Origin: Kryptolebias marmoratus | Lineage: Eukaryota > Chordata > Actinopteri > Cyprinodontiformes > Rivulidae | Length of the DNA: 64,000 nucleotides | Direction of reading: 5' to 3' | NCBI RefSeq assembly: GCF_001649575.2 | Contig: NC_051433.1 | Coordinates: 20,198,577 to 20,262,576 of the forward strand | Part shown: positions 38,801 to 61,807 of the stretch, in pieces | How positions within the stretch are numbered: the stretch's first letter is position 1 | How the letters are laid out: every line of letters starts with the position of its first letter | Made by a program: the position numbers and the translations under genes | Notes under the pieces: generated by a model | Told to the model about the DNA's origin: nothing | The model's input: only the letters and a program-made list of their open reading frames with translations | Databases searched by the model: none

Positions 38801-41800
38801 CCTCTCAGAGCAGGAGGGGTCAACAAACTGACATGATTGTCACTAAATTATTGAAAGCCTCAAAAAACAATTTCATGGTCCTTTTTTTGAGCTTTTGTTG
38901 CACATATTTCAAATTTCTACAAAAAAAAGTGAAATAGTATTTGTTTATGTTGTCACCGTATAATGGTGCACACAAACATTTAGGTTTGGGTTTTTAGTTG
39001 ACACAAAGCATCCTATCTGTTAAACTTTAATCCAAAACAAAATAATTTGTGTGAGAATTGTGAACAGAGCCCTGTTGTTTTTATTTTATTTTAGATATAC
39101 TCACTGTATTTCTGTTTCTTCCTGAAGAGTGTTACACCTTCCACACTTGTCTGTAATTCTAATATTCACATTATAAAACTACATTATCTATAAGGCTGAC
39201 CTCATGAAGTCAAAAGAAGCCAAATACCAGTGTATATATATCAATGTTTGAATGCAAACTGCTGATAGTACAAACTTGGTATCAAATAAAGCTGCAGGAG
39301 ACAAGTTAAGATTTTCATGTTCTTATTTTCTACAGAACACATTCTTTGCATCTTTAATCTGAATATGATGGCTATGACTGATGTGCACTTAATATTTTTA
39401 ATGCAGTGCTTGTGGGTGTGTTTGTTTGTCAGCGTTTCAGAGGTTTTTAGGGAAGAAGGACGTGTCCCAGGAGCTGGAAGAGGTCCATGCGGAGGCACGC
39501 GCTCAGGACAACCTCCACGCCGTCTCTGTGCTGCAGCTGCTGAGGAGCCCAGCTGTTCATTGGCAACTCATCACTATTATCATCACCATGGCCTGCTATC
39601 AGCTCTGTGGCCTCAATGCTGTAAGATATGACACTCATGTTTCATCAGTTTCACTTTAATCCAATTCTATATGCTATTTTGCCATTCAAAATGATCTGTT
39701 TTTTGGAGTTCTGTGATTTTCATTTTTATATTTATGGATTCAGATAAATACAAGATTTGTAAAAAAACACCAAAGTTCCTTTTTTTTCTGAATGCATTTC
39801 ATCAGTAAATTGTTAAATTGTGCCTTATTCTTTTCCATTCACAAGATTAAAGGTATATATATTAAAGGTATATCCTCAAATTTGGACAAATTGTTCTTTT
39901 CCATTTTTTCATTACAGATAAAGCTTTGCTGTTCATAAAGATGATTTTTTAAAATTCTCTTATAATGTGATTGGCTATTTAAAGCAAAGGGTTTGATATG
40001 CTTATAGAATTGTTACAAAATTTTGTTTGGCACTATAAAAACTGAAAACATGACATGATCAGGTTAACACAAAAATCAATATGAAATTACCTTTTCTTAC
40101 AGTCTTCCAATCACCAATGCAAACAATTTAGTCATTAGTTTGCAGATAATAGTTTAGATATCTTAAAATAAATAAAGGCATTCCAAACACTTTGAAACTC
40201 ATTTGATGTGCTGTATTTTACTAAAAATAACATACATCAATGTTAATCTTCTGCAGGACTGCTCAGACATGCTGTCCCATTTAAGTGACAAAAGCATCAG
40301 TACTGATGTCAGGAGGTGGATCAGGTGCAGCAGCTCACACTGTTTTGTTCTCCCTCTTGGGACATCTGTATTCACAGTTGTGACTCCAAATACATGGAAG
40401 GCTAGAGCGGAGACAAAAGAAGTACCCAGATGGCTTTTTTGTTTAGATTTTAGGTTTTATAAAAATGACAAAATACTACTGCAGTCTTGGGAAAAGATAG
40501 TTTCCCTGAATAAAAATAGAAAACTGTAAAGATAATCATAAAAAAATGAACTCTTGCATAAAAAAAGTTTCTTGATCATCTAGTGAGTCACATTCTAATT
40601 AGGTTTGTGTTCAGCACTGGATATGGGAACTCAGTGTATAATTGTGTCTTGTGAACTGCATCCACAGGATGAGATTTTGAACTTTCCTCCTCCTGATAAC
40701 AACGGTGCAGTGGGTGGTCATGGTGGTTGCCCAAGCTTTTTGTCCCACCCTCCTTGTTTCGTGCCTGTATGTAACCAAAATATTCCTGCATTAAAGGAGG
40801 GTTGGCCTCCCAGCCCCGAAGCAACACTTCATCATGACTAAACAGCAAAATGGTCTGACTACCAATGATTCCCTAAGCAACATAATTCTTTTAGAAATAC
40901 AGTGATGCTACACAGTCCACAGTCAGAGTTAGCTTGAATAGCAAGTCAGTATTTAAACACAAGACTGCCTCCCAGAAGTATTACAACAGGTTTAGGAGTT
41001 TAAACTACATTAATAGATTCAGGGGAAAAAAATATTCTGACTTTTGGCTCTTTTTAGGCTTTTTCACAGTACTGTTATATAATATCTCCACAAACATTAG
41101 CCCCTCTTTCAAGTCAACTTTGGTTGTTTCCAAATGCACCAATCGAGACAGCTACATCCCATGACAATACACAATGCCCCTCCCCCTTACTCACCAACAT
41201 AGCTCTGTGACTACCTCCTTTGCCGACTCAGAGGCAAAACAGCAACTGGTTGCCTTTAAACCCCATTTCAAATTGGCTGTTACTGTAATTTATCATATTC
41301 TGGAGGATGTTGCAGAACTAACCAGGCTGGCCTCATGCTTAGGCCACAACCACATCAAGTTATTAGCTTTGTGCTAGTGTAGCATGATATTTTAGTGCCA
41401 TAGATACATCTTGACAGACCAAAAAAAGTCAGGATGGGGCCCTGGTGGTAGGCTCCTCATGGGAACAGGCTGCTGACACAGAAAGCATCTTGAGGATGCA
41501 AAACAAATTTGGGGAGTACTAAGAGTGTAGCAATGTCACGATAGGAGGTTTTCTAAATTCGCCATAATGTTGCCATATTCTAATAGGTTGTGTAGGTTGT
41601 GGAAAGTGTAGTGGGGTTTTACCCTTGTGTGAAGAGGGTCTTAGCGTTTTCTAAGTTTGCATCAGCCTGGTTACTAGAACCTAATTTATTTTCTTGCAGA
41701 TTTGGTACTACACTAATGGGATCCTACGGGCAGCAGGCTTTGCTGAGAATTTACTCCCCTACGTCACACTGAGCACAGGAGCTGTAGAGACTCTGGCTGC

Positions 41801-44800
41801 TATCGTCTCTGTAAGTATCCCCGCTTTTCTAGTTAAATCACAAATTTCTGACTGATGTGAAAAGGCATGGCTGCTGTTTTGAGTGTGCTATTACAAAAAA
41901 CAAACAAAAAACCTATGGAGCTGGGATTATGATGACTAACGGCTGTGATGGAAGGTGAAATGCAAAGCAACAAAAAAACAAAACATCTTACAGGGACGTT
42001 TCTGGCATTCAGCACACCTTGACATAAAAAAGGACTCCGGACTGAGGACACGAGTGTTGTTGCAGCATACTCACTTCCCAACTCCCACAGTATTCTTTCA
42101 TTAAACTTTTATGAGCAGCAAAATTTTCTAGATTAGCCATAACATGCTGGAAGAAACCACTGGTGATGCCTTTGGGGTGACGCTGAGGTGTTTTATTTTA
42201 ATTATGTCAACTGCACTTTCTGTTCTCCAGTAAAAATAAAACAACTGGGGATGACTTTTGAGAGAGAGAGAGGTGTTAGGCTACTGTCAATAACTGCTGC
42301 ACACATAAAATCTTTCAGACACTAGTCAATAATTTTCAGTAGTTAATTTTAATTCATTTAAAATGGTGGTGTTTGAATATTGAGTGTCCCATGGTGGTTT
42401 GCTATTGATCCGAGTTACAGTGAAAGAGGAACAACTGTGTAAATATATTAGCCACTCGTGCAATAAAGTGCAAAGTCAGGGGTATAGTGTTTGTGTTCCA
42501 TGACTGCAAAGGCCGGGCTTAAATCCCTCCTAAGGGGAGTGTTCTCAGTAATAAAACTGGGGGGGGGGAAACCATGGGCAGAATCAAATTACTCTGAATG
42601 GATTATAGCAAAATACAGTTTAGCATCTGTTCATATTCCAGAATAATCACCTGTGAAAGTATCCACTACTGCGGACATGATTCCAAGACTAACCAAACAC
42701 AGACGTACATGCTAATTATTACAGCAAACCAAGCAGTTTTTCAAAAGCAAATAAGCACTGAGCCGCAAACACAGATCTGATGTCATTCTGAGGCCTGTAA
42801 TTTATCAGCAACACACACAGCTTGTTTCTCACAAACATGATCACCTGTTGAGGTAGTCAAGATGTCCTCTTTGGCTCAGATTAAATAAAGACTGTCATTG
42901 AAGTCTAATTTGACAAACAAACCCCTACACTCACATGAATGGCTTTAGAGTTCACACTTCAGTTTAAATAGATTCAAATGAGATACATTCAGCATCAGAC
43001 AGAACACATGAATGAGAATGAATCAATAAAACCTTCCATGAACTCAAACAGTAATTATAAGAAAGACATTTTGCACTCACCAAGCAGGCATCTGTCACTA
43101 TCTACAGCATCCTGCATAACCCTGAGATAATTGTAAACATTTTTTATCTTTCAAGACATTTTAAAGAAGATGAACATGCTGGGCTGCAGAAGGTCCTATA
43201 GTCAGAGATTCCAGGTTTTCTTAAACGTCCTTTCAATAAAAGTGTGGCTTGGCAGTCACTCTTATGATGTCTTCCTTTTTAGCATTCCAAACACATTTAC
43301 ACAATGGAAAATTTATTCGTTCACACACTCTCGCTCCTCCTGCTGGCAAATACTTGTGTGTCATCCTCACAACAACTTCAAGCACAAAAGTTGAGTGTGT
43401 TTATGGCATTTAATAATGATGCAATTGGCAGTAAACTGCATGCCACAAAACTTAGTAAATAAGCAGGGTAATAGTTTACACATTCATATAGAGGCAGTTG
43501 CGAATTTAGGCCATAATTCCCTTTATGACAAACACAAAGCTTTTTGCTGCTTTTCACTTTCAAGCTATGAGAGGTTTTTATAATAGAAGGTTGGAATAAC
43601 TTTAGGGAGTGATTAAAATGACAGAGCTGTGCAGAACTCAGGTCAGTGAGGGAAGTGACTGAGTGTTAGTCTGAAAGAGTGGTAATAGAAATGCACAAAA
43701 TCTGCGAGTGCGTGCTCAAAACAAGATCATTTTGATTTCTATGATAAATTGTGTGCCAGAGTTTCAAACGGCTTTAACAAACAGAGAAAATGTGTTGGTG
43801 TGAGCTGCTGCAGATACACCGTTGTTCACGCCCACAGCAGTCTGCGGGGTTTTCATGTCACCGTATTGTAACAGCTTGGCTCACTTGAACCTAGGCTCAG
43901 CTTGTGCTCACACAAGTATCAGTATCAGTTACATGGCTCTACCTACAAAACAAAAAAAGCAAAAATAAAACAAGCAGAGCTGCGCTGCTGTGTATTGTAC
44001 CGTGTAATGCAAAAGCGTCATTCATAAATCTGCGTCTGAATGCCTCCTGGCCTGATAATGCCTTCAGGAGCTAAAGCAGCGAGAATGCCTGACCTAGTTG
44101 CTTTTGGGTTTTCAAAGAAGCTGGGCAAATATCTGCTCTTTATTATGTCCCATTTTTGAGAAGAAATGAATCTTACCTTATTTAACAACACATCTAAAAT
44201 AAATCTGCTGCTTTTCAGTCATTGATCCAACCCCTATCTTGCTAACAGTCGGTGGATATAAATTAACCAGGCCAAATTTCTATCCAAGGAATTTTAGTTG
44301 CTCTGAATTTACGGTCAGTAAAAGCGCTGCTTTTCAAAGTGTAGCACTTGACAAAAAGCAGTGGGAAACGTACCCTATCATCCTTCCTCATTTAATAAGT
44401 GCATTTCTGCCCATGTGGGCTGCTGCCTATTTCTGTGATTCCTGTGAGCACTAGCAGAGTAAAGATGATCTTTTATCTGTAACGGAGGGAAGACCTGCCG
44501 AGTGGTTTTACTGCCTGGTGGAAACCTTCAAACAGCCACATTTTCTCTCCAGACATCACTTTTGCCTGCAGCAACTTCTCATCAGGAACAGCTAACTCAT
44601 CCCCAAGAACTTTAGCTTAATGCCACCACCTTTATTTTTTTCCCCCTCAAAATAATGAGCCACTGGCAGCTTTTGTTAGAATACACAAAGTATTCAGAAA
44701 TGATCAAAGTGACAATCACATGTCCACTGGCTAAACAGCTGTAAACAAGAATTTATAACAACAGACATTTTGTCGTGAATTGTGAGTTCTCTGTAAAACA

Positions 44801-48449: not shown

Positions 48450-50379
48450 CAGGCTCATAAATATCCATTCTCAGAAATCTTCAGAGACCCTAATGAGCTG
48501 GTAGTATGCTTGAAGTTTGTGTGAATTGCTGCGGTATAGCGGGTGTATGTGAAAGAAATGTCTTGAGCCTACAGGGACGACCTCCAATGGGATGTACATA
48601 TTGAGATGTCTGCGTACAATGTTCTGAGCGTAAATTTCACTGTAGCTATGTGGAGGAAATCCAAACCGAAAACTGACGCAGTTTGGGGCATTCCAACAGG
48701 AAAGTGCACAAGAAGAAGAAGAAAATAATTAAACTCCTAGCATTCCTCAAAGGAATGCATATTGCCCAAGACTATTCATACCAGAATTTTAAACTAAGAG
48801 CATTTTGTGATAAAAGAGAACAAAGTTATAGCCGTTTGGGTCAAGAGTTGTAAATGATGTTATGCACAATCCTATATACTCGGTGTATGTGTTGAAGATG
48901 ACTCTCAGCTACTCACCGCACCAAAATGGTGCTCAACATCTGTAAAACTGACAGTTTTTGCGCTGGCTAAAGTATCTGTGGCAGCCATCTTGATATACTG
49001 TGACTCCAAAAAGGTATTCAGTTGTAGATGTACGTCTCATGATCATTTTTTGGAAGTTGCATTAAAATCTGTCAAGTGGTCCATAAGATTTTTTAATACA
49101 GAAAATTAGTGTTGATACCAACAGTTAATGCAAAGGTTTTAGGCAAAGATGTCATGCATTGTGTAGTGCTCAGAATTTGGGCTGGAGATGATGTTCAGAT
49201 ACAAATTTTAGCTCAGTATCTGTAAGATTGGCTGAGTTGTAGCCACTTTTCCAACATTTTTTTAGTTGTGGCGACCATCTTAAACTGGGTTGACTCTAAA
49301 GGTTTATCAGTTGTAAATGTTCGTCCAGTCGTTACTTTGTGAGACTTTTAATAAAACCTGTCCAGGGGTTCATGAGATATTTTGCTAAAATGAAAGTAAA
49401 ACAAACAAACACACTCACAGTCATTGTTGAAATTATTTTCTCTCCTTTTCCTTTGACGGCAGGTGATAATATTGACAGTGAAAATGTTTGATAGGTTTTC
49501 CTGGATTTGCAGCTTTCATACTGCCTTTCTACTCAGGAGCTATGTACTATAAAAAGAGCAGTGACTTTTTTCCTCAGTCTCATGAAATCCTACTGATTAA
49601 GAGGGATTAAATTAGTGCTATAAATTCTTGGTCTAAAAGGCCAATGTGAAATAAGGCTAAAGTGTGTGTGTCTGTGTGTGTGTATATGAGGTCACTAAGG
49701 ACTCGATCTTACATCCATTGCTTGATCTATAATCTAGAGGGACACGTGGGTCAAGTGGGCCAGAATTATTGCAGCGCTGTGCACAGGAAAACTCATATAA
49801 ATGTAAATAAACTTCCCTTAAAGCAACAATGTTGAAGTCAAAGTAAAACCAGAAACTGGCAAAGAAATTCCTTTTCGGTGGGGATACTCACCTGGAGACA
49901 AAGAATATCTGATCAAAAAGTGGTCATGGTTAAATTTTTTATAAACATCAACGTGGCTCAAAGTGACAACAATCAATGTACTCATCAACAAATTAACTTA
50001 TTTCAAATTAAATTGCAGTCATAGTAGCAGTAGTGCACCTCTGAGATATTTTTCTTCTGTTCTCCTGTTTTTAGGGTCTGGTGATAGAGCGAGTTGGAAG
50101 AAGACCCCTCCTTATATTTGGTTTCTCCTCAATGGCTGTATTCTTCAGCTTGCTTACAGTTTTTCTCAACTTCCAGGTAAATCATTCTTTTGTGCGTAAA
50201 GTGCTGTCTTTGTAAACACACCTTGATGGTAGTTATTGTGTGCAAACAAGCATCTCACAATTACAGCTTTTTACATTTTAACCTTTTTCCCGCCTGACTC
50301 CAGGATAGCGTGTCATGGATGCCGTATCTCAGTTATGTCTGTATATTGGCAGTCATCGCAGCCTTTTGCTCTGGACCAG
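413..50379 (+). CDS. slc2a9: Class II facilitative glucose/urate transporter (GLUT9-like), spliced, partial at both ends
   Basis: Eight GT-AG exons (413-573, 7195-7319, 10088-10233, 29027-29159, 39433-39620, 41700-41810, 50075-50176, 50304-50379) join without a stop into 1042 coding bases, 347 codons plus one base. The product is the TM2 to TM10 part of a major facilitator superfamily sugar transporter. Family marks in order: N-glycosylation sequon NKT in the first outer loop, LGRK after TM2, GRIVIG and PMYLGEISP around TM4, LPESPRYLL after TM6, QLCGLNAIW in TM7, [10 protein letters not shown] after TM8 and GPG in TM10. The QLCGLNAIW form and the YIKAFYN start point to GLUT9, a plasma-membrane transporter of urate and hexoses, rather than GLUT5 or GLUT11. 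TM1 and the start codon lie upstream of the window. The expected next exon is on the opposite strand (see 61680-61807). A fish paralogue such as slc2a15 or a slc2a9-like duplicate is the main alternative. Confidence 0.85.
765..1245 (+). mobile_element. Tc1/mariner-like transposon relic, 5' part only
   Basis: This stretch aligns by eye with the 5' and N-terminal part of the element at 27000-28310: both share AGACATCAGCAATG, then CCTAGGAGT/TCTAGGAGT with 'ggatg/tgatg', and AATTAGA(G/A)AAAGACTGAACAAG. It lacks the catalytic part and stops near 1245. Stops and A-runs break the frame, so it is dead. Confidence 0.75.
1809..1840. repeat. Imperfect (TG)n microsatellite
   Basis: TG run with TACG and TGCG interruptions. 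Confidence 0.9.
2655..3060 (+). repeat. Dispersed repeat family B, copy 1
   Basis: Shares with the three other copies the blocks AAAGTGGATTACTGCTG, AAAACAACTCCAATCTAAAA, TTGGTCTTGGCTTTGCTCGG and CTAGCTGTTAGCTCA. Non-coding. Confidence 0.75.
5744..6181 (+). repeat. Dispersed repeat family A, copy 1
   Basis: Begins near a TG/TTTG-rich segment and AAAATATCTCATGAGCCACT. It continues with ACATCTACAACTGATTAACT and a CAGATATTGAGCTAAAATCTGG block, and ends with GATGATATGCATTAC and an AAGGAATCCTAGACCTTTAA tail. The same order of blocks recurs at five other places in the window. No coding capacity is seen. Confidence 0.8.
7195..7319 (+). CDS. slc2a9: GLUT9-like coding exon b (TM3 and start of TM4)
   Basis: This 125-base exon has a strong pyrimidine tract and TTTTTTTCAG acceptor and ends CTG|gtgagt. 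Joined to the previous exon it reads [20 protein letters not shown], then [20 protein letters not shown], then IGVNSG with the last glycine codon split. The basic GRK turn between TM2 and TM3 and the GRxxxG motif entering TM4 are hallmarks of the sugar-porter family. TM3 covers about residues 58-75 of the partial protein. No in-frame stop and no unusual codons are seen. Confidence 0.9.
7720..8610 (+). repeat. Dispersed repeat family A, copy 2, internally multiplied
   Basis: Same blocks as copy 1, but the 'ACTGATTAGC / TTGGAGTCAA / AAGATGGCTGCC' unit occurs three times (about 7853, 8008 and 8300), and the copy is about twice as long. The end again reads GATGATATGCATTCC, TTTCAGGAATATTAGGTCTT. 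Confidence 0.8.
9635..10045 (+). repeat. Dispersed repeat family B, copy 2, next to exon c
   Basis: Starts TTAAAGGAATAGTTTGGATT, a common fish repeat start. It continues with AGTGGACTGCTGCTG and CTAAAAGATTTTTATAGAAG and ends with TTTTCCACAGAACACCACTT, matching the end of copy 3. It ends about 40 bases before the acceptor of exon c. Confidence 0.75.
10088..10233 (+). CDS. slc2a9: GLUT9-like coding exon c (TM4, inner turn, TM5)
   Basis: This 146-base exon follows acceptor TTTCGTGCTAG and ends CAG|gtcagt at a codon boundary. It encodes [20 protein letters not shown], then [20 protein letters not shown] and LGLPQLLGQ. The block ALSxLPMYLxEISP is the GLUT9 version of the TM4 exit; GLUT5 and GLUT7 have ELAP-type versions, so this exon carries much of the weight for the family call. 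TM5 covers about residues 116-135. A copy of dispersed repeat family B ends only about 40 bases before the acceptor. Confidence 0.92.
10803..10840. repeat. (AT)19 microsatellite
   Basis: Perfect run of 19 AT units, able to form a cruciform; intronic, about 570 bases after exon c. Confidence 0.98.
12330..12573. repeat. Chimeric repeat: SINE-like piece joined to a hAT-type MITE end
   Basis: The first part (about 12330-12427) contains GATGCCTCAAAACAAGAAGG and a polymerase III B-box-like GGTTCGAGTCC, the form seen in a common fish repeat. From about 12428 the sequence is the right part of a hAT-type MITE ending GGACCAGAATTGGCCACCCC TG at 12573; its left terminal repeat is missing. A decayed fish repeat tail follows to about 12695. 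Confidence 0.65.
13735..13763 (+). promoter_or_regulatory. Candidate enhancer core: CCAAT, E-box and MEF2-like sites
   Basis: Within 29 bases there is CCAAT (13735-13739), the palindromic E-box CAGCTG (13745-13750) and CTATTTATAG (13754-13763), a perfect match to the MEF2 consensus YTAWWWWTAR. It lies in less AT-rich, repeat-free sequence (about 13550-13850) of the longest intron. Function is inferred from motifs alone. Confidence 0.3.
14411..14885 (+). repeat. Dispersed repeat family A, copy 3
   Basis: TG-rich start, AGCAAAATATCGTACGTACC, a TGGAGTCAACTCAATTCAAG block, CAGATATTGAGCTAAAACTC and end GATGATACACATTCG. Same orientation as copies 1 and 2. Confidence 0.8.
17814..17848. repeat. (TG)n microsatellite
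   Basis: TG run interrupted once by TA near its right end; intronic. Confidence 0.95.
18390..18985 (+). repeat. Dispersed repeat family B, copy 3 (longest)
   Basis: Contains GAAATGGGGTTCGGTGAAAA, AGAGTGGATTGCTGCTG, CTTGGCCCTGCTCAGACTAG and end CTTTCTACAGAACATAACTT. It looks like the most complete copy in the window. Confidence 0.75.
19833..20102 (+). repeat. SINE-like element, decayed
   Basis: Contains GGTAGAGATCTTGTCGTC, TTTGGCAAGACACTCAACCC and, at the end, AGGTGTTATATAAACCGCC, which match the body and 3' part (…GGCAAGACACT…, TATATAAA) of tRNA-derived fish SINEs by recall. The tRNA-like head is too decayed to call a gene. Confidence 0.55.
22906..23228. mobile_element. hAT-type MITE (AGTGATGGGAA family), degenerate
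   Basis: Starts TAGTGATGGGAATTATGACT, and its right end (AATGAGTCAAATTTTAACTG) is a decayed inverted copy of that. The interior repeats GGCTCT, AGAGCC and GGATCTC blocks. It resembles widespread vertebrate hAT MITEs that start with AGTGATGGGAA. Non-coding. Confidence 0.7.
25245..25865 (+). repeat. Dispersed repeat family B, copy 4
   Basis: Contains GATTGCTGTTGTGTTAAAAA, TGTAATCTAAAAAA, CTTGATCCTGGCCCAACTTG and end CTTTCTACGGAACCTCAATT, in the same order as copy 3. A further short fragment with CCAAGACCAAAGTGGAT lies at about 26440-26510. Confidence 0.7.
26990..28310 (+). mobile_element. Tc1/mariner-like transposon relic, nearly full length
   Basis: A single element with the layout of fish Tc1-like transposons: a terminal region with ATCTGGTCTTTACCAGGTT, a degenerate transposase frame from about 27347 ([11 protein letters not shown]) and a 3' end near 28310. 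The terminal motif recurs at about 45000, where an independent minus-strand copy lies. The right terminus is not clearly preserved. It sits in the same orientation as the host gene, in the intron before exon d. Confidence 0.8.
27347..28230 (+). pseudogene. Tc1-like transposase pseudogene
   Basis: Cut-and-paste DDE transposase by family. A helix-turn-helix N-terminal start (MQRRKDIS) is readable at 27347. Around 27733 the first catalytic aspartate context reads [11 protein letters not shown]. Around 27956 the second reads QDNEPKHNS. The third motif, usually SPDLNPIE followed by WWD, is reduced near 28035 to [11 protein letters not shown], with the catalytic glutamate apparently deleted. Frameshifts and stops separate these blocks. 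The enzyme cannot be active. Confidence 0.75.
28585..28604. repeat. (AG)n microsatellite
   Basis: Run of AG units about 430 bases before exon d. Confidence 0.95.
29027..29159 (+). CDS. slc2a9: GLUT9-like coding exon d (TM6 and PESPRYLL motif)
   Basis: This 133-base exon follows the longest intron of the window (18,793 bases). The acceptor is TTCTGAATGCAG; it ends AAAG|gtaata in phase 1. It encodes [20 protein letters not shown] (TM6) and [20 protein letters not shown], then [13 protein letters not shown] is the conserved sequence at the inner end of TM6 in GLUT proteins and leads into the intracellular helical loop between the two six-helix halves. Nothing is truncated. Confidence 0.92.
30790..30955 (+). 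repeat. SINE or LINE-tail fragment
   Basis: Has a B-box-like GGTTTGAGTCC, then AGAAAGGGCATCTGGCATAA, AATTGCCAAATTTTCTATGC and GAAGGGTGCAGCTGAAAAAG, a well-known fish repeat tail. Non-coding. Confidence 0.6.
31122..31225 (+). repeat. Left end of a common fish MITE (TACAACCCCAATT family)
   Basis: TACAACCCCAATTTCACAAA, then TGTAAAATGTAAACAAAGAC and AGAATGCAATGCAAA follow a widespread teleost element by recall. Only the left end is present. Confidence 0.6.
36541..37141. repeat. Mosaic repeat block with two copies of one unit
   Basis: Opens with CATCCATTTTCTATACC (a fish repeat start) and contains a TTTATTTAACCAGGCAAACC insertion. It then has two diverged copies of a unit with 'gtgggaggaaa..ggagta.ctggagaaaacccatg' and ending 'cttgttgtgaagcaacagtgct.accact': about 36734-36880 and 36983-37139. 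Both units end GCTGCCCAT or GCCGCCCAT. Confidence 0.75.
39433..39620 (+). CDS. slc2a9: GLUT9-like coding exon e (intracellular helical loop and TM7)
   Basis: This 188-base exon starts after TTTGTTTGTCAG and ends GCT|gtaaga. Its first two bases complete an alanine codon. It encodes [40 protein letters not shown] and the start of TM7, [18 protein letters not shown]. The acidic DVSQELEEV stretch is the cytoplasmic loop of class II GLUTs. QLCGLNA, with cysteine where GLUT1 and GLUT5 have serine, is the GLUT9 form of the substrate-binding TM7 motif. The exon ends exactly between A and I of the NAI selectivity motif. Confidence 0.93.
39621..41699 (+). other. Intron between exons e and f (2,079 bases)
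   Basis: No repeat or exon recognised. The stretch 40250-41400 is less AT-rich than its surroundings and carries short open frames on both strands that match nothing I know. Confidence 0.4.
41700..41810 (+). CDS. slc2a9: GLUT9-like coding exon f (end of TM7, TM8)
   Basis: This exon has 111 bases, exactly 37 codons, phase 0 at both ends, with acceptor ATTTTCTTGCAG and donor TCT|gtaagt. It encodes [20 protein letters not shown] and then [17 protein letters not shown]. The leading isoleucine completes NAI; the isoleucine or valine at this position has been linked in class II GLUTs to fructose handling. Tryptophan after NAI is typical of GLUT9. YVTLSTG...ETLAA is TM8. Confidence 0.93.
44860..44965 (+). 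repeat. Fish repeat tail (GGCGCTGGGATGGACTTGCG)
   Basis: GGACTTGCGACCCGTCCAGG, TGTACCCCGCCTCTC and the GACCCGGAAAGG...AGATGG end are the tail of the same repeat class as in 36541-37141. It directly abuts the Tc1-like fragment at 44985. Confidence 0.7.
44985..45335 (-). mobile_element. Tc1-like transposon relic, 3' end plus terminal repeat, reversed
   Basis: The left part (ATCTGGTCTTTACCAGG, then CAGATCCCACCATGTCATT) matches the terminal region of the 27000 element. The right part, read in reverse, matches the 3' end of its transposase (AGAGACTGATAAAGTCCTAC and CTGAAGCAACATTGTAAAGA). So it is the 3' third of the same family in the opposite orientation, cut off inside the coding part. Confidence 0.75.
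48418..48447. repeat. (AC)n microsatellite
   Basis: Perfect run of AC units; intronic. Confidence 0.97.
48730..49430 (-). repeat. Dispersed repeat family A, copy 4, two units
   Basis: Reverse orientation. It opens with CTAGCATTCCTCAAAGGAAT (reverse of the family 3' end) and closes with GGTTCATGAGATATTTTGCT (reverse of the 5' start). The 'gccatctt...gactc' block occurs twice, near 48985 and 49270, so this copy also carries an internal duplication. Confidence 0.8.
50075..50176 (+). CDS. slc2a9: GLUT9-like coding exon g (TM8-TM9 turn and TM9)
   Basis: This exon has 102 bases, 34 codons, phase 0, with acceptor CTCCTGTTTTTAG and donor CAG|gtaaat. It encodes [20 protein letters not shown] and [24 protein letters not shown] is the sugar-porter signature in the cytoplasmic turn after TM8, the second-half counterpart of the GRK turn in exon b. 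The hydrophobic stretch after it is TM9. It is followed by the shortest intron of the gene (127 bases). Confidence 0.93.
50304..50379 (+). CDS. slc2a9: GLUT9-like coding exon h (TM10, up to GPG)
   Basis: This 76-base exon follows acceptor CCTGACTCCAG and ends CCAG|gtaaag in phase 1. It encodes [20 protein letters not shown] and FCSGP with the first base of the next glycine. FCSGP is the start of the TM10 GPGGIP motif. The next exon should begin with the rest of that glycine codon and then GIPF. That sequence exists in the window only at 61680-61807 on the opposite strand. Confidence 0.92.
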
Positions 50380-51345
50380 GTAAAGCTACCATTTTTATTC
50401 AAACTGCACTTAAAACAAAAAATGTATATGTCCCGCATCTGTTAACTTTATGGTTTATTTAAATGTGCCTGTAATTCAGTGACGTTGCTGTTGGATAATC
50501 AAAGTGACTTTCTCCATCTGCGCTCTGGAATAATTAGCAAACTAGCTTGTCACAGTGAAAGGTGTCCTATTTTAGCATACTAAATACAAGCTATACATTA
50601 CTGCTTTTGCATGGCTCTGCAATTGTGTGAGTGCATGCTTTGGGTCTTGGTACGAGGTTGACTTTGGGTCAAGGTGAGGCAGCTGCTGTCACCACTCACA
50701 TCAGTTAGGAGTAATTATGTCTCAGGGGAGTTTTGCACAGTGAAGTGCTTATACAATAAGATGAAGGAGCCTTCACAATGATCACATATGGAACATTATG
50801 TGAAGCCCGTTAGGTCATTTTAAACAGATCATGCTCTTGGAGAGGTAAAATATCTTGAGACAAACACAACTGTAGGTGGCACAGCACTACCACCACTCTG
50901 TTAAAACACTGTGGTCATTAGGTGCCTTGCTCACGTGCACAATGTGGTAATCATGGAGAAAGGAGAAACCATCTCCCTGCACGTTGATAATTTATGGCCC
51001 CTTGAAACAAATGAAGCTTCTCACTGGGAGGGGTAGTGCAGAATATACTCGGGAGAGATGGACCCTGTAGTGTTTTGAGCCTTTGAGTGGATAAATGAGG
51101 AGCCATAGTTCCTCTGAAGTTGCTTCACCATGGGAACAGTGGCCCAGATATTTCACGGTTGTACAAAAAGACAAAGTAAATGTTCCTCTTTAAAAAGGAA
51201 ACATGGATATATTTCTGTTCGACATACCAAAGGGTATAAGCCACAGCTTGTTTTCTTCTTATTAATCTGTGTTTCGTATTACCTTTAATTCGTGTTTTAA
51301 GCCACAGAGGTTTTTGTTTTATCTACTTTTCTTTTGTTTAATGAA

Positions 51346-51425
51346 TCCATCTATTTTCTATAACCTACTTCCACTTGTTTAGGGGTTATGGGAGTTGGGG
51401 GAAGTTGAGCATTTGTCTTCTGCCA
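51346..51425 (+). repeat. Fragment of the common fish repeat (CCATCTATTTTCTATAACC)
   Basis: Contains ATCCATCTATTTTCTATAAC, CTTCCACTTGTTTAGGGGTT and ATGGGAGTTGGGGG, a decayed copy of the same start seen at 36541. Confidence 0.55.
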
Positions 51426-54400
51426 AATCAAATCTTTTTTGTTGTCTGAACCTTTCCATGCATTTTTGTTCTTTTTGTTGGAACATAGTAATGTTGTCAG
51501 ACTCTCTTTTTGACACTTAAGTAATTTCATGGTAATATACAGTATAAACATTGTTTCTGTTTAGATAATTGCCTTCCAACCACAACATATTTAATTTTTA
51601 CAGTTTTTCATTTTTTCCTCTTTCTTTCCATTCCATGTTTGTTTATCATCTTTATTTACACCCATATCACACAAAACACAGAGTATTACTTGGAATTTTC
51701 CTTCACCCACAAGTTTTATCTTCTAATGTCATTTTGGATTAACTTACGCTGCACTTCATGTACCACAGATAAGACTAATATGTGATATATTTTGAGCCTT
51801 TTGCAACCTTCTACAGAGTCGGAAAATAAACCTCTTTGATTTTTCCAATATACCTTTCACAGTTACAAAGTTTATTTAACTTTGTACAGAAACAGCCAAA
51901 GCTTTTTTCAATATACTTTGTTCAGAAGGAAAGATTTGAGAAAACATTTACTTGGTAAGCTAATTTTTCTGATGAATCAGGTCAAATTTGCCTCTGTAAG
52001 ATGTTTTTTTCTTCTAGTTTCCAGTTGTTATTGGATGCAGCTGCAGGGCGTGTACCAAAGAAGTTGCAAATTTCATGTGAAAACTCCAGTAGGACACACT
52101 ACAATTACAGCGTATACATGTTCACTCAATGGGTCTATACCCCATTTAGCTTAAATTGATCAGAATTTATCAGGAGTGTTTTGGGTTATGTATTTGTACT
52201 AAACTATCAGTACTGACATCAGAGTTCAGATTACGAATATGATGTTACAATCACTTCATTCTAAAAGAAAGTGTGGGAGAACATGTGTGTGTGCATGTTG
52301 TAAATGTTTTTTACCAACCACCACAACAAAAAAAGCGTAGAGGAAGAAACTATCTAAAGCACTCTACACTAAAACAAAGCAATAATGGTGAGTTCAAATG
52401 AAACACTGAAACCTGAAGACCTGCCTGTTTGGTCTGAAGCAGCAGTGTAAAACGTTTTGTTTTGCAGAAGATCCACGGCAGCAGAACAGAGCACCATTTA
52501 ATTATATGGAAAAACAAAAAGTCATATTTAAATCTGATGTTGAATAAGCTCAGTAAAGTATGCCTTCAGGTGTTTATTAAACATCCCCATGAATGAACAG
52601 CACACCAGTACCCACCTAGCTGAGAAGCTCAACATGAATATTTAACATTTTACTTTTGTGTTTTCACATTGGCAGATGGTAATTACTTCTATATTTTCTT
52701 TTATTTTGCATGAAGTTTAGGGCAATTGAAGTGAAACAAACATTATCTTTTGTATTATTTTCTGAAAAGTTAAGATCAATTTAAGAGTTTTTCTGTAAAT
52801 GGCTTGTTACTTTAGTCTCCCTAAAAGCAAGGGTAGTTTGTTTTTCCTTTTCTGCTTCTAGGTTTGGATTGCTCTGGTATTCTTTCATTTAATTGAGTTT
52901 AGGTTAAGTAAATTTCTTGTTTTTGTTCTTTTAGTTCTTGTCACGCCTTTTTGATGTCCCCCTGTATCTTTGTTTCTATCTTCTTGTTAGCACATGTCCT
53001 TAATCAACCTCCGTTTCCAATCACTCACTCCATCCCACTATTTGTCTCCTATTGGCAGATATTTGTAGTTCAAAATTTTTTAACGAGTAAGTTTTATTAA
53101 GTTCACCTCAAGTCTAGTTTTCTTACATTTTGTCCAAAGTCTAGTTTGGATAATTCTGCTTCTGGCAACTTTTAGTTTGTAATCAAGTTTACAGATCTTA
53201 ACTTTCTTTCTGCTTTGTCCTCTATTCAAATCCTTCATCTCCAAATGGTGGGTTTTAATATCTTCCTTAAGTTATTCATAGTAGGAGCACACCTTTCAGG
53301 GTTTATGGTTATAATTCTGCTATCCAGTACTTTGTAATACTATTTCTTACCACCTGCAAATCCATTTTCTGCAACCTATTGCAGATGTAATGTTACCCCA
53401 TAAAGTTTTCATCATCCTGTTTACCTTCCTGCTTATTTTCTCTCACATGCCATCTTCATTTTTTGCTTTCATGGCTGATGCTTGAGAAAACCAACAAAAC
53501 ACATTATGAAGGAAAACACAACTCTTAAATTGGCGTCTGCAGTGTAATCAGTGCAGAAAGAACATGTATATCAGATCTTGTGATTGATTTTTGTTTGTTT
53601 GCTTTTAAAGAAATCAACTTTAGTCCTTTGTGTTACAATAATAAAACACAGAGTTCAGAGGAGCCTCATGAATTATGCATGTAGTTATATGTTGTCCCTT
53701 TTGGCATTGTGATCAGTGGGCTTATTTGTGCCTGCACAGTGGCCTGGATGGTCTCCACTGGGAATGTTATTTTTATAAGCCAATACTGCAGTCATCAAAC
53801 TTGCACAAAGTCAGCACAATGGCCACAACACATTCACATCAGGGATGGTAGACTGGTGTTGGTATAAGGCTTGAAGGGCTTGACAGAACATACACCCAGC
53901 GTCTATAGGATCCTCAGCACCTAGGCTGCAGAGCTTTTTCCTTCTTCTTTTTGTGTTTTTCTGGCAGCCGTGTTTCAAAAATTACAGACTGAAAGACAGC
54001 GATTTTTTTGTAGTGAAATTTTTAGTTTTCGGTTGTCTTTTTCCCCCCACTTTTTCTCAGTAACGTGAAACAAAACACAACAATGTGCTCTTCACGTTGT
54101 GCATTTAAAAAAATGAATAAGATTCAAACAAGTTCAGCTCTGTTCAGAACCAAACTCAGCCAATTTAGTCAAAATGTCACATAATTGAAAAAATATTGAG
54201 AAAAAAAATACTATCTTCAGTCACAAGGTTAATCTCTGGGGCACCTTTTCAATTGTTATTCCACTGAAGTCCTGTCGTCAAAATTTGCTCATGGATGACT
54301 TGTGCACTGAGCATATTGACTTTTTAAGTGCACACTTTGTGACTTGTTCAAGTTAACTCTTCATAATGATGTTTGCTCCATTAATTTAAATGGTTGATGT

Positions 54401-57400
54401 GCTTTGTGTGTCACATGTTTTGTGACAACAAAGGGACCAAGAAGATAAACAAGACTGTGGATGAAGTGTCTTTTTTTAGTTAAGGGAAACACAGATCTCA
54501 CAGGAAGTCAGCCTTAGAAATGTATGGAGAATTATTACTTCTTTGGCTGTGCAGGCTTTTAATGTGTCATGTTTGCTGTTTTGAGATTCACATTTGTATG
54601 ACTATTGGAAGCTGCTGGAGCCACAGTCAAATATTTTTTTTGCAAGTTTGTCCCTGAGTCATAATTTTAGATGGTTTGAGTCATGAACAAGTTGAACCAA
54701 TGTTTGCTGAGACATATACGTTTATTTGCCAAAACAGAAAAGTTGGTTCACTGTGTGCAGCTACTGTATCTGGTCAAAATGAATCAGGTCTTTTAAATTG
54801 CTTGTGGATGTGTCTGGGAATCACTGTAAAAACCCTGATACTTTTACACTAGAGGCAGCTGAACAAATTGTAAGGAGATGGGAAGAGATTGGAATTCTGA
54901 AATGTAGAGATGAGATCTCATGTTTTATTTCAACATGTTATCAATTTTTCACCCATCTGATAGCTTAGAGGTGCCCCTAAAACCTAGCATCTGAGCCGAG
55001 TTCTTATTTAAAAGGAAAACAAGTCAAAACATTCAATTTTGTTTTATTTTCCTTTACTTTACTTTTATCCACCTGCTCTAGGATCCTGACGCTGTCAACT
55101 CATTAAATTGTCGATTCTCTTTGCTGTTGCTCCAGCTGAGGGCTGCCCTCTTGTCAGAAACGAGAAACACATCTTCCCCCCGAGTCGTTCTGTAACTTTG
55201 CTTAGCATGAAAACTAATAAGGCCACATGTAAGAAACTAACAAGAGAAGAGACAAGCGCAGCATGCAACTGCTCTGCTTTTACATTCTGCATTGAGAATG
55301 AGAAGTTACATGTTGATAAGAATTAGACTGTACAGGCTATATATGTACCTGAATATGAATTTCTTGAAAATATATCTCCTACAGGGCTGGGTAAGACATT
55401 TTCTTTGTGTATCTTGCAGAAAGTAAGGAAGCGTCTACACTGAACAGATTGTCATGTTTCCATGAGAGACAGCAGAGACTGACAGGACCCCAAAGGTGCT
55501 ATGACAGGCTCATTAGTTTGGGTCCAGCACCTCTTCCCGTATTGTGCAGGTGTTTCTGCAAGTGCCTTTACTGTTCAGTAAGGCACTTTTAAATCAAACC
55601 ACTTTCATTTTTCCGCCGTCAAGGTGCAATTTCAAAAACACGGAGTGCAGCAGGAGTAGGAGGTTGTGGGTAATTGTACACCTGGGGCGGGCGGTCACCG
55701 GCTCTTTTTACTCCGTCTGTTGGTCAGGACATTTTTTTACAGATGAAGGAACAAAAGTGTCAGTACTTAGAGTTTGTTCAGTTCCGCTACGCTAAAATGG
55801 CTCCCCGAGGATAGAAATGAGTGGTTCTTATGTTTGACAGGACAAAATAAATAAATAAATAAACATGGGGTGAGTTTTGTAACCTTGTGAATGCTCTTAC
55901 AAGAGGCTGTGAATTTCGTGCATAAGAAATAAATTACACCACAGTATTTAGTATTACCATCTGCCTAAAAAGGCTGGTGAGCCTGTCTTGTTATGGCATG
56001 TAATTTAGGACATTATAAAGATTTCTAATATATTTTCAACATAACTTTCGTAGGCTTAAGACGCAACAGACGAATATTTTGTCATTGTTGTCACATCATG
56101 GAGAAAAGTGATTTAATTAGAAAATAATTTGATAACAATCGAACAAAAGAGTCATAACACTATAGTAACATCACACAACGATTGCGCCACTTCTAAAGGT
56201 TATTTTTTAGAAATCAACCAGAATATCGACCTTTTCAGGTTCATTCAGGGGACAGAAAGTTGACAATCTTCCAGCTGAAGATCTGATCTGAAGGTGTGCT
56301 TGTGGTGTACACAGGAAGCTACATTTTACTATTTTGGTGGATCACAATTGATCTAAATAGCTTGCACTATTTCCTTTCCCTCAGGCTCTGAAAGCCACTG
56401 TACCAAACTAATAAAAAGCACAAGATGTTTTGATAGATTTTGCTTACGTTATTTATGAGTCTTGTCATTAAATAGTTTGAAACCGTTTTACCAGCTAATA
56501 AATTAAACAGGCAGTGCATTGGTAATGGAGTGTGAGTTATTAAGTTATGCTGTTAGTGTGTTGGCAGAGTTGCTGGTAATACAGTGCTTGAAATGCTCTA
56601 CTCTCTCTTCTACACCGTAGACGTTGCTACAGGGAAAATAATATCGTTACACAGCAGAATGGCAGCAGATGAAAAATACAGTCTTCACTCACAGATGTAA
56701 CATAATTTCAACTTATTCTTGTGTAGCAAAGAATAAATCTGTAGTTGAATTTTTAAGGTTGGTATTCAAACAGGACCATTGCAATTTTTAAATTCTTTGG
56801 CAAACTGCAGAACTATATTCCCACCCAAACCACTTTGCAATAATTGTGAATTTTAGTCTGTGCCAGATAATACTGTCAAGAAGCACGGCAATGCTGCATT
56901 ACATTTGTATTTGGAAGCTGAAATTTTAAAGTTCAAAGTCCGAAAATTCAACTGGAATTCATCCCAAAGTCAGAATTCTGACTTGGAAAGTCAGAGATTC
57001 CCAACCTTCAAAATCCAATATAACTGACTCACATATGAAAAGTTGTCAGAGCTGCAGTAACAAAATTTTTATTTGTCATTTGTCAGTTTGCATCTCAGTA
57101 ATTCACTCTCACACACGGTATAATCCAGCCGCCATTAGCGACATTAGCAGTTGTTTGTTTGAATGCATATAATGCAGAGATATCCATTGGGATACGCTTG
57201 TACTGCTAATTGTAGTTAGCCTGATCACTTAACATAACTATTATCAAATCCAACTGGTTTTCCGAGTTGCAAGTGAAAGATCCAAGATCCAAGTTTCGAT
57301 TTCCAAGGCAAATAAGATGCAGCAAAAATCCTGAACAGATCACATGACTGACACAAAGAGAAAAAAGAACCATCCACACACACGTTACAATGGATCTCTA

Positions 57401-58854
57401 TGAACATTTCACTGAAGGAAACCGAAGCATCTGGAGAAAACAGAACCTTGAATAGGAATTTTAAATATTTATCTTAACCAGCTGTTTTTTGTTCATGAGC
57501 AAGGAGCACAGTGGTGAATAAAATCATTATTGACAGATGGATTATGTAAAACAGTATGTTTCAGCTTGATTTTTCAGCTAAAAAAACCCCCAAAAAACAA
57601 AAAAACAAAGTCCGTGAAAAACACAATGAATGCAGAAGTGAGAGGAACAGCAGCAACTCCTGTCGAACCCAGCACTCCTGCTGGTACACAAACAAATATG
57701 AGTCATATTGTTCCCGAAATAGACTGATAGAAAATATGAATGATGATTCACTATTGACTTCCTCATTACAACAGTTAAACCCACCCTCCCAGAATCCGTC
57801 CCTCCTGGGGCCATGGCTGGTGGGATAACGTGTAAAGTCCTCCAGTCTGTGGAGACACTCAGCGTGCCAAGTGACTGCTGGCCAGTGTGGGCTGGCTCAC
57901 ATGGTTAGTTCCTGAAGAACAGATGCTGTAATGTTGTGAGGACCTGTGCTCTTACAAGCACTGAGGTGTCAAAAGACGTTAGCCATGTGGCCTGCTGAGA
58001 TTTCCTCTCTATCTTCAGGCCACACAGTTGCTGACTGCAGCATCTTTCTGCAGCTTTCAGGTTTTCTGGTGGTTTCAAAGCCGCAGAATGAAAGCTATGA
58101 TTGTCTGCAGACTGTTAGTCCCAGAAGACGTTTGGTGTTCTGCGGAAATACCTGTCATGCTTCCCATTGTCTCCTACATTTTTCCGTTAAATCGTGATCA
58201 GTGTTTTTATTTAAACTTTCTTTTTCTCTAATGATGATGAGCATTTTACATTTAAAAATCAGTCCTTAAAACTGACGTTTTTAGTACAGTTTTATCTTCT
58301 AAATTCACACCATTAACATGTGATTAAAGCGTTTCTCATTTATTATGTGGAAGTTTTTATACAAAAACATTGAGCACAGACATTAAGGAAAAATATTTAT
58401 TTGGTTTGCAGCAAACTATCCTACCTTGTGTTCTACAATATTCTTTTTTTGTGTTTTACCGGATAATCATTCTGCTCCATCGTGGCTCCAGGTTCCTGCA
58501 GTTTTTGGTAAAAGCTTTGATGCGATTGCAGTTGTCTTTTGTTGCCCCAAAGCATGAATAGCAAGGCTAAATATATGTTTGCAGAGTTGAGTTGAGTATT
58601 TGCTTTGTTCCCACTCTCTCCTGGGCAGGCATTTTAATTAACTCACAAAAACAAATAAACAAACCTGCATTACCAGCATACACACATGGACTGCGTCGGA
58701 GGTGTGATGCTGTGAAATGGGAAAAACTGCACAAATACACGCTTGGGAAATATTTGAGTTCTCGGTTGTATTTCAGCTCCACACAACACCTGGATGTGAT
58801 TTTGACTTATGACTGGATTTGGCAAAGTTCTCATTTATTATCACCTGTTGCTGA

Positions 58855-59180
58855 AAGGTGAAAGGCAGGTGATACTGTTTTTGCCCATGTTTGTGTGTCT
58901 GTCTGTTAGCAAAATATGTCACAAACCACTGCACAGATTTTAATGATATTCATCTAGAACTGATTTATTTTTAAAGTCAATCCAAGTCCAGATGACCGCC
59001 AACATTAACCAACAGAAAAATGGTTATAACACAGTTAGTTTAACATAACATTATTTTTTAAGTTTGGACCAAAATGATTACAACTATGACATTTCTCAAT
59101 TTAAGATGATCATGGACTAAAACTCTGACATGAAAAGAAATGAGCATTGTACGTTCCTTCAAGGAATGCGCAGCTTTAAT
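58855..59180 (+). repeat. Dispersed repeat family A, copy 5
   Basis: TTTTTGCCCATGTTTGTGTG, TCTGTTAGCAAAATATGTCA and the end GTTCCTTCAAGGAATGCGCA follow the family order. Shorter than copy 1 by an internal deletion. Confidence 0.75.
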
Positions 59181-61484
59181 TAATTTGAGGTAATCACTGA
59201 AACAAAACTCCAACAGCCAGCCAACAATCCTGTCAAATAGTGTTCATAAATTAATTGTCATTGTGACTTAAGGTCCAAATTAATAAAATCCACTTGGAAA
59301 TACATCATTTTTTAACCCTTTATAAAATGATGTGTGTTAGAATATTTGTTTTTACAATTTTAGTCAATTTTGATGTTTGATCAATTTTACTTTGGAATCA
59401 AAATATTATAAGCATGGTGGGAGTTGCTTTTAAATATTCCACATACTTGTTATAATTCACAAATTACCTTCAAAAAGTCTTGTTTAGCATCCAGATTCAG
59501 GTGACTTAAAACCTGACACAATAACTTGGCTACAGTATGCATGGAAACTGGAGTTAGTTAGTAAATAGGACCAAGCACCACCGACTGTCACCACAATTTG
59601 GCATTTTTTATGAATAAAATCTACTCACTTCTCATACTTTATGACATTAGTGGTACTGAACATTAGCAAGTTTTTAAAAGTAGTTTCCTGAGCCCTTTAT
59701 TCCTACATTGTGAGCAAACAATATTTAAAAAGATATATACAATCTTAAAAAACAACTTTGGGTATGACTGATTGTTTCTGTGTGTGTTTTCATGCAAAGC
59801 TAAAGTGGAGAAAGTTCTAGGCCCGCAGCACACTTTCAGCAGATGATTATTTCACAGCTGAAGGATTGCATTAATTAATTCCTGTTGACTCACTGATGTA
59901 AAACAGGGATTAAAAGTTGCCTATATGAAAAAAATAAACATTACACACTCCTGCTGCTGTACCACCCAAACCTGTGAGTTGGTATGTTGGCAGGTCTAGT
60001 CGAGGCTGAAGAAGCCTTTGCAGACTTTCTTATAATTGTCATATTTAGGCTGTATTATAAATTTAAGATGGGCGTAGACTTTTTTTGAGTTCTGGAAACT
60101 TATTTGCAATAAGTGCAAAATGATTCTGTTCATAATCATACCATGAATCACTGCCCTCAAAGAGCACTTAACAGCTGTATCCACTGCAATTATTCAACCA
60201 ATGTTGTGAAATAAAGGGACTGAAGCAAATTCAAATAAGTGTGCTGACTAATGATATTTCAGAGAAGTTGTACAGGTGGATAGAGCACCAAACTTCCTGT
60301 TGACAGCAGAATAAAGCAGGTTCCCAGTGCAGAAAAAAAAAGATAAAACGGCACCTAAACAAGCTGAGAAAGCTGTACATACGCACACAGAGACTGGCCT
60401 TGACTGTAGTACAGTCACACAATTAGTCTTGGAGAAGTCAAAACAACTTTGGATAAACATGCACTTACATTGTGATTCTTTTTCAGAATCTTCGTTTGAA
60501 AGCTACAGAGCCATAGTTTTAATTCATCTGATCCTAACTCAGCCCATTTCATCCAGAACCATGCTGTAGGGGGGACTGACGCTTCTGCAGCTATCAGCTG
60601 AGATTCATGAGCCTCAGCTCTGATTCCTGATCCATCTGCTAAGCTTCAGCCATCCAGACCAAAACAAAAGCCTGCCATTGATTTTGTGTGACCTTCAGAT
60701 AAGCTGCTGACCACCAGTTGACTCCTTGGCTCCACAGCAGGGGGAAATCCACCTGTGGTAACCCAGCCTAAGAGAGACAGCCTCACCAAGCATCCTTGTA
60801 CCAAAAAGAAGCTGTTTTGTTATCTTAGCGGCAGTGGTTGATAATTATTTGGTCTTGTTATTATTTAAAATTTACCCTGATGCCATGCTTGATAAGTACC
60901 TTCTTTTCCTGATTTTCACCTTCTGCCAAATCACCTCAGGTCAGTCTGTCAATTTTATTAAATTCATTAAATTTCAGATTCATTCCCATTTCATTCACCT
61001 ATAAACTCCAGATTCATTTGCATTTTTCCCAAATTTTAAACCTCCAAATTAGCAGTCAAAGTTTTCTTGTTCAAAATATCTCCTTATCTGATCAAGTTAC
61101 TCAGAGTTTGATGACTTAAGCTGCTTTGCATTCAGAGGTTTACACAGTTGTTCCAATTATTTTACAATAATGTTTTGCATTTCATATCATGGTCTCATAT
61201 CAATATGATGATGATGAGGATTTATTACCAAATTCCACAGTTTGTCTTGAATTATTTGTTTGGTATGTTATATATTTTATTTATAAAATGGATTGAATTC
61301 TGAGTGTAATTTCATGATTCACTGGTAACAGGACAAACTCCTTTATTTTAAAGAGAACTGAGAATGGTAATTTATGTGATTCTTTCTTTACATTTATTAG
61401 TTTCAATAATCCATCAATCATTTTAATTTGGTGCTCCTTCAGCTTGTGCAAAATCTAAAATATGTATGCTTTCTTATTACATCT

Positions 61485-61580
61485 GTCTCGTCTCATCAGA
61501 AAATGATTTAAGTCTAAAACGTTGGCATGCAAGGCGGCGGGAGCTATGCTTTCCTTCTAGGAATGCTGGACCTTTAAATA
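61485..61580 (+). repeat. Dispersed repeat family A, copy 6, 3' end only
   Basis: Only the last part of the family is present (CTAGGAATGCTGGACCTTTA). It ends about 100 bases from the inverted GLUT exon. Confidence 0.6.
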
Positions 61581-61679
61581 TAGCTAAAGACCTTGTTACT
61601 TGAACTAAGTGTGCTCCAGTACCTGGCGCTGAATGTAGTGTTTCTTTTTTTGTTTTTTTGTTTAGATTTAGGAACTTAC

Positions 61680-61807
61680 CTGAATGAATGGGAATAAAAG
61701 GCCCACAGCAAAGTTCGACAGCCAGTTCACAGTACCAGCGATCATGAAAGCAGCAGGTCGATAGGACTGTTCAAACAGTTCCCCAGTCAGGATAAATGGG
61801 ATGCCAC
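61680..61807 (-). CDS. GLUT9-like coding exon (end of TM10, TM11), on the opposite strand
   Basis: Read on the minus strand, a 128-base exon runs from acceptor TTTCTCCTCATCAG to donor CAG|gtaagttc. It starts with two bases that complete a split glycine codon, exactly the phase left open at 50379. It encodes [40 protein letters not shown] and FIQ, very close to GLUT9 and unlike the GPSPIP form of GLUT5. The reading frame is open and the splice sites look functional, so it is not an obvious relic. Its orientation is opposite to the eight other exons. Either it belongs to a second convergent GLUT9-like gene whose earlier exons lie beyond the right edge, or an inversion or misassembly separates it from the gene at 413-50379. 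Confidence 0.9.

What the first reader, a model, noticed from the sequence alone, without database searches (positions are those of the whole stretch)
50304..61807. Next GLUT9-like exon is present but inverted relative to the preceding eight
Exon h ends at 50379 in phase 1 inside the GPG codon run. The only sequence in the window that continues the protein ([10 protein letters not shown] to FPFIQ, 128 bases, matching phase, good splice sites) lies at 61680-61807 on the minus strand. Three explanations: (1) two convergent GLUT9-like genes, the second mostly beyond 64000; (2) a real inversion that breaks the gene or has produced a new arrangement; (3) an assembly orientation error. The intact frame and splice sites favour a functional exon; family knowledge says these two exons are normally consecutive on one strand.
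Basis: partly seen in the sequence, partly recalled or inferred. Interest (0 to 1): 0.75.

Follow-up and report, generated by a model that had tools for sequence, protein, structure and literature searches.

The report
Likely misassembled exon in fish GLUT9
One exon of a fish urate and sugar transporter gene lies backwards inside its own gene in this draft genome, and the evidence points to a short-read assembly error rather than to a rearranged or second gene.

Summary
Exon h ends at 50379 (+), and the next exon (128 bases, intact frame and splice sites) lies at 61680-61807 (-). The window comes from Kryptolebias marmoratus: annotated slc2a9 proteins match 100% and sit on a contig of the same length. 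The sequence beyond the window argues against 'two convergent genes'. The last GLUT9 exon lies on the + strand at window-equivalent 108930-109172, and no second GLUT9 gene was found. So one gene has a single flipped exon. The 95 bases right after a 100-N gap (87834-87928, the contig carrying exon j) are the exact reverse complement of 60091-60185 and match nowhere else in the assembly. This overlap ties the exon-i side of 60091 to the exon-j contig in the normal order. 95 is K-1 for ALLPATHS-LG's unipath K of 96, the assembler used at default settings. Exon i shows no decay. Best reading: an assembly error inside intron 9. A real recent inversion with duplicated breakpoints is not excluded (about 10%): the join at 60090/60091 has no gap, and a staggered-break inversion would look similar. 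RNA or long reads would decide.

The parts
413..573 (+). slc2a9 coding exon (YIKAF..LG), phase 0 to 2
   Evidence: tblastn; AG|..|GT and joined frame checked
7195..7319 (+). slc2a9 coding exon (KGTLL..NSG)
10088..10233 (+). slc2a9 coding exon (IALSA..LLGQ)
29027..29159 (+). slc2a9 coding exon (ESRWN..GAEK)
39433..39620 (+). slc2a9 coding exon (AFQRF..GLNA)
41700..41810 (+). slc2a9 coding exon (IWYYT..AIVS)
50075..50176 (+). slc2a9 coding exon (GLVIE..LNFQ)
50304..50379 (+). exon h of the finding (exon 9 in this report), DSVSW..CSGP, ends in phase 1
60091..60185 (-). 95-base stretch exactly repeated, inverted, as the first 95 bases (window-equivalent 87834-87928) of the contig after a 100-N gap, the contig that carries terminal exon j (108930-109172, +); inferred left edge of the flipped segment
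   Evidence: only two places in the assembly
61680..61807 (-). exon i, [14 protein letters not shown], 128 bases, intact, on the minus strand
   Evidence: one place found in the assembly (40 of 134 candidates scored)

Best explanation
This is one slc2a9 (GLUT9) gene of Kryptolebias marmoratus on the + strand. In the animal, exon i most likely lies on the + strand between exon 9 (50304-50379) and exon j (108930-109172), as the proteins of other fish imply. In the assembly, a stretch of intron 9 with exon i, starting at about 60091, was joined in the wrong orientation. It is either the whole block up to the gap at 87734, or only the piece up to the N run at 64001, also displaced. Shown: strands, phases, N runs and the exact 95-base overlap that links the exon-i side of 60091 to the exon-j contig in the normal order. 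Inferred: that the join at 60090/60091 is false and not a real breakpoint.
For: Exons 1-9 and j are on one strand, with i alone flipped. 87834-87928 begins at the first base after a 100-N gap and equals the reverse complement of 60091-60185 over 95 of 95 bases, then diverges; it has two places in the assembly (2 of 2 candidates scored). For 465 random starts in the region the longest inverted exact prefix match was 54, median 9. The published SK-strain assembly was made with ALLPATHS-LG r42411 at default settings from an isogenic fish (PMC5223126); default unipath k-mer size is 96 (PMC5905499), so K-1 = 95. In a benchmark on human chromosome 14 ALLPATHS-LG made 146 misjoins, 44 of them inversions (PMC3532452). 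The sequence just left of the gap at 87734 is a transposon with 39 other listed places at 98-100% identity, and the 12-kb N run ends inside another dispersed transposon's terminal repeat, so order and orientation there presumably rest on mate pairs (inference). Exon i departs at 0 of 28 conserved columns and exon j at 0 of 17. 116 of 120 relatives' proteins carry 9-i-j in order. Thirteen of 13 other GLUT-family exon pairs found in this genome are on one strand in the normal order.
Against: The sequence from exon 9 to exon i has no gap (no N in the window), so the error must be a chimeric contig, not just a flipped scaffold piece. A real inversion by staggered breaks would also leave an inverted duplication at the breakpoints, so the 95 bases alone do not decide. 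Of the 10 contig ends tested, only this one shows a unique 95-base overlap, so it is not shown to be a general habit of this assembly; the one other gap-edge match that looked alike (86 bases) is a transposon end. NCBI models X1 and X2 join exon 9 straight to exon j out of frame, and X3 ends in a + strand exon from 84709; transcripts of a truly inverted gene could look like that, although any model on this assembly must skip a minus-strand exon. No reads and no second assembly were available, and no transcript of this species joining h-i-j was listed.
Confidence: 0.86

Rival explanations
1. A real, recent inversion inside intron 9 of the sequenced strain. Staggered breaks duplicated about 95 bases at both breakpoints, flipped exon i and truncated GLUT9 after exon 9.
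For: The join at 60090/60091 is gapless. The inverted duplication fits the staggered-break model of inversions (recalled). Public gene models lack exon i.
Against: The second copy of the 95 bases starts exactly at a contig end and its length is K-1 of the assembler. Exons i and j show no decay. No transposon pair that could have mediated an inversion was seen: the 60090 junction matched only itself and the 95 bases, and the transposon at 87577-87733 has no second copy in the 194 kb compared.
Confidence: 0.1
2. Exon i is duplicated: a working + strand copy lies in an unread gap (64001-76075 or a 100-N gap), and the minus-strand exon is an extra inverted copy.
For: About 12.3 kb of the interval reads N.
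Against: One place was found for exon i in the whole assembly (40 of 134 candidates scored), and in the protein search only the known GLUT9 exons exceed 65% identity (37 of 37 scored). The 95-base overlap already places this copy next to exon j.
Confidence: 0.03
3. Two convergent GLUT9-like genes, the second mostly beyond 64000.
For: None found.
Against: Between -30000 and 194000 the only minus-strand match is exon i. The terminal exon j is on the + strand at 108930. No other close GLUT9 copy in the assembly.
Confidence: 0.01

Closest known systems
SLC2A9 (GLUT9), facilitative urate/hexose transporter, teleost orthologues (e.g. Austrofundulus limnaeus)
   Same: Homology over all exons, 93% identity to the A. 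limnaeus protein when exon i is read in its normal place
   Different: In this assembly exon i is on the opposite strand; annotated NCBI proteins leave the GLUT9 frame after exon 9 (413-431 aa against 527 aa)
ALLPATHS-LG misjoins and small inversions (PMC3532452, table and passages seen)
   Same: Flipped segment with gaps on one side and a contig-end overlap of K-1 bases
   Different: Here one of the two joins is gapless, so a chimeric contig is needed as well
Natural inversions with inverted breakpoint duplications (staggered breaks; recalled)
   Same: The same 95 bases, inverted, at both ends of the flipped segment
   Different: The second copy begins exactly at a contig end next to a gap; no read evidence that both copies exist

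Membership tests
SLC2A9 / GLUT9 | Closest to GLUT9 among solved GLUT structures | tested here: met
   h+i segment: GLUT9 chains E 1.5e-32 to 1.9e-32, next GLUT5 E 2.7e-22
SLC2A9 / GLUT9 | Sugar_tr (PF00083) domain | tested here: met
   Exon i alone 38.9 bits, cut-off 22.3
SLC2A9 / GLUT9 | Whole transporter encoded by collinear exons in one transcript | tested here: inconclusive
   Exons intact, but i is inverted in the assembly; no reads held and no transcript of this species listed
SLC2A9 / GLUT9 | Urate transport | not testable with these tools
   Needs an assay
Short-read assembly inversion artefact | Flipped segment bounded by contig ends or gaps | tested here: inconclusive
   Right side has N runs (64001, 77678, 87734); left side at 60090/60091 is gapless
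Short-read assembly inversion artefact | Contig-end overlap that supports the normal order | tested here: met
   95 of 95 bases, first base after the gap, two places in the assembly
Short-read assembly inversion artefact | Reads contradict the assembled join | not testable with these tools
   No reads held
Natural inversion | Both breakpoints supported by reads or a second assembly | not testable with these tools
   No second assembly of the species held
Convergent duplicate gene | Second set of minus-strand exons to the right | tested here: not met
   Only exon i on the minus strand to window-equivalent 194000, N runs excepted

The most novel reading that the evidence does not exclude
A real intron-9 inversion with an inverted breakpoint duplication of 95 bases or more arose recently in the selfing SK line of K. 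marmoratus, flipped one exon and made a natural GLUT9 knock-out, with new terminal exons (9 to j out of frame; 9 to 84709) expressed.
Probability: 0.1. Interest if true: 0.5.

Novelty: not a real feature. Interest (0 to 1): 0.15.

Why it matters
If it is an artefact, it explains why the public slc2a9 models of this selfing fish are short (413-446 aa against 527 in Austrofundulus). They could be misread as a gene loss or as new isoforms. If the inversion were real, it would be a natural GLUT9 null in a selfing vertebrate.

Tried and rejected
Convergent second gene: searched by tblastn from -30000 to window-equivalent 194000 and across the assembly; not found. One search also listed two weak + strand matches (12733, E 0.80; 50047, E 0.61), taken as chance.

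Hidden + strand exon i: none in readable sequence; one place in the assembly. In one search the other 39 places listed match only within query 1-88, a dispersed repeat at 61500-61587.

The second gap-edge match (77778-77863 = 76134-76219, 86 bases, direct) first looked like the same signature. It is the terminal repeat of a dispersed transposon that also flanks the N run at -17645/-16323, so it is not counted as support. One search tested the 10 contig ends of five N runs; the two ends at 184187/185332, found later, were not tested.

Strand skew, to tell which pieces are flipped: all 12 segments lay within 0.051 of zero with no consistent sign, uninformative. Which piece is flipped (60091-64000 or 60091-87733) stays open.

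Search for K. marmoratus transcripts joining h-i-j: none among the 120 listed of 2444 hits or the 86 hits. Hits of 100% identity over 24% of the query are exon i read into introns; four of the seven such proteins fetched share one intron-side stretch, which differs from this gene's, so they are not from this locus.

Literature: no paper in the held library holds both 'Kryptolebias marmoratus' and 'slc2a9'. The listings, made for other questions, show no title on this inversion; I saw listings only. Most subscription papers and the other strain's assembly were not available.
Full report
WHAT WAS CHECKED. Exon h (50304-50379, +) and exon i (61807-61680, -) are as described, with AG|..|GT sites and matching phase. 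Joined, they match human GLUT9 with E 1.5e-32, ahead of GLUT5 at 2.7e-22. The window has no N, so the sequence from h to i is continuous in the assembly.

WHERE IT IS FROM. The window is C4:20198577-20262576 of a genome of 680,653,423 bases in 300 contigs. Three annotated slc2a9 isoforms of Kryptolebias marmoratus (P0207-P0209) match exons 1-9 at 100% and lie on a contig of 31,635,803 bases, the length of C4. I infer that the genome is the SK-strain assembly of PMC5223126 (passages and the Assembly section seen): ALLPATHS-LG r42411, default parameters, five libraries of 200 bp to 20 kb, an isogenic selfing fish, 680,349,455 bases in scaffolds, later anchored to a linkage map.

THE REST OF THE GENE. 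I fetched 30 kb to the left and 130 kb to the right. The ATG exon is at -14233 and the TM1 exon matches at -8214..-8107. The terminal exon j (EKLQTFAFL..MESSF, stop) lies on the + strand at 108930-109172 in window-equivalent coordinates. Exon i alone is reversed. Skipping it breaks the frame: exon 9 ends in phase 1 and exon j starts in phase 0. The only minus-strand GLUT9 match from -30000 to 194000 is exon i. In the assembly-wide protein search the only rows over 65% identity are exons of this gene. So there is one gene, not a convergent pair.

N RUNS AND THE KEY OVERLAP. N runs in the fetched region are -17644..-16324 (1321), 64001-76075 (12,075), 77678-77777 (100), 87734-87833 (100), 142416-143344 (929) and 184187-185332 (1146). 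The 12-kb run starts exactly at the window's end; the tool says that withheld stretches also read N, so I cannot be sure that it is an assembly gap. Its left edge is a run of T and its right edge lies in a transposon terminal repeat, which fits a gap. The contig that carries exon j begins at 87834. Its first 95 bases are the exact reverse complement of 60091-60185; the next base differs. A 500-base query around it found only these two places in the whole assembly. Among 465 random starts in the region the longest inverted exact prefix match was 54 bases, median 9. Of the 10 contig ends tested, this is the only one with such a unique overlap; four others carry one dispersed transposon's terminal repeat.

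WHAT THE OVERLAP MEANS. Read on the minus strand from exon i, the sequence runs 61680, 60185, 60091, and the overlap continues into 87929 onwards and so to exon j. That is the normal gene order. ALLPATHS-LG builds its unipaths with k-mer size 96 (PMC5905499, passage), so neighbouring unipaths share 95 bases (recalled property of such graphs). The branch is: exon-i side, then the 95 bases, then either the left flank (as assembled) or the exon-j contig. One of the two continuations is false, or both are real because the 95 bases are duplicated. The normal order in relatives, the inbred source and the state of the exon favour the exon-j continuation. The number 95 is suggestive, not proof.

RIGHT EDGE. 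The last 157 bases before the gap at 87734 belong to a young transposon: the other 39 listed places match there at 98-100% (40 of 1140 candidates scored). The contigs right of 64000 are therefore linked across repeats.

STATE OF THE GENE. Against 120 relatives (those listed, of 216 proteins held), the K. marmoratus protein departs at 0 of 28 conserved columns in exon i, 0 of 17 in exon j and 1 of 228 overall, the one in exon 6 (columns conserved at 97% or more, columns with fewer than 60 residues dropped). 116 of 120 relatives carry 9-i-j in order; two lack part of exon 9, two lack part of j. In the same genome 13 of 13 other GLUT-family pairs of the two exon types lie on one strand in normal order (32 of the 38 rows used, six of these unpaired).

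PUBLIC GENE MODELS. X1 and X2 (431, 430 aa) join exon 9 directly to exon j out of frame; X3 (413 aa) ends in a short exon from 84709 on the + strand; a UniProt model (446 aa) reads into intron 9. Models on this assembly must skip a minus-strand exon, so X1 and X2 do not test orientation. If X3 rests on spliced reads, which I cannot see, then the piece 77778-87733 is correctly oriented, and only 60091 to about 64000 is flipped and displaced.

BASE RATE. In a benchmark on human chromosome 14, ALLPATHS-LG made 146 misjoins, 44 of them inversions (PMC3532452, table and passages; a passage there reports short chimeric sequences at scaffold joints). Some intragenic assembly inversions are therefore to be expected in a 680-Mb genome (inference).

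WHAT REMAINS OPEN. The join at 60090/60091 is gapless, so the error needs a chimeric contig. A real inversion with staggered breaks would give the same two copies of the 95 bases. I put the artefact at 0.86, a real inversion at 0.10, a hidden duplicate exon at 0.03 and a convergent gene at 0.01. RNA or long reads would decide.

Noticed in passing
-17795 to -16176, 76076-76219 and 77778-77863 (window-equivalent): Dispersed transposon with terminal inverted repeats of about 148 bases; N runs fall inside or beside its copies.
   Followed up: partly
87577-87733 (window-equivalent): Edge of a young high-copy transposon, 98-100% identical in the other 39 listed places, where a contig breaks off.
   Followed up: partly
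61500-61587: Short dispersed repeat beside exon i, 77-87% identical in the other 39 listed places.
   Followed up: no
62537-62760: Imperfect inverted repeat, 40-base arms 78% complementary, 144 bases apart; a similar element is at 176200-176423.
   Followed up: no
84709-84737 (window-equivalent): Short + strand terminal exon (AIWPVQETS, stop) used by annotated isoform X3; its read support is unknown and would tell the orientation of that contig.
   Followed up: partly
C4:20484256-20484651 (about 222 kb to the right of the window): Another GLUT-family gene fragment on the + strand, 35-49% identical to the GLUT9 C-terminal part.
   Followed up: no
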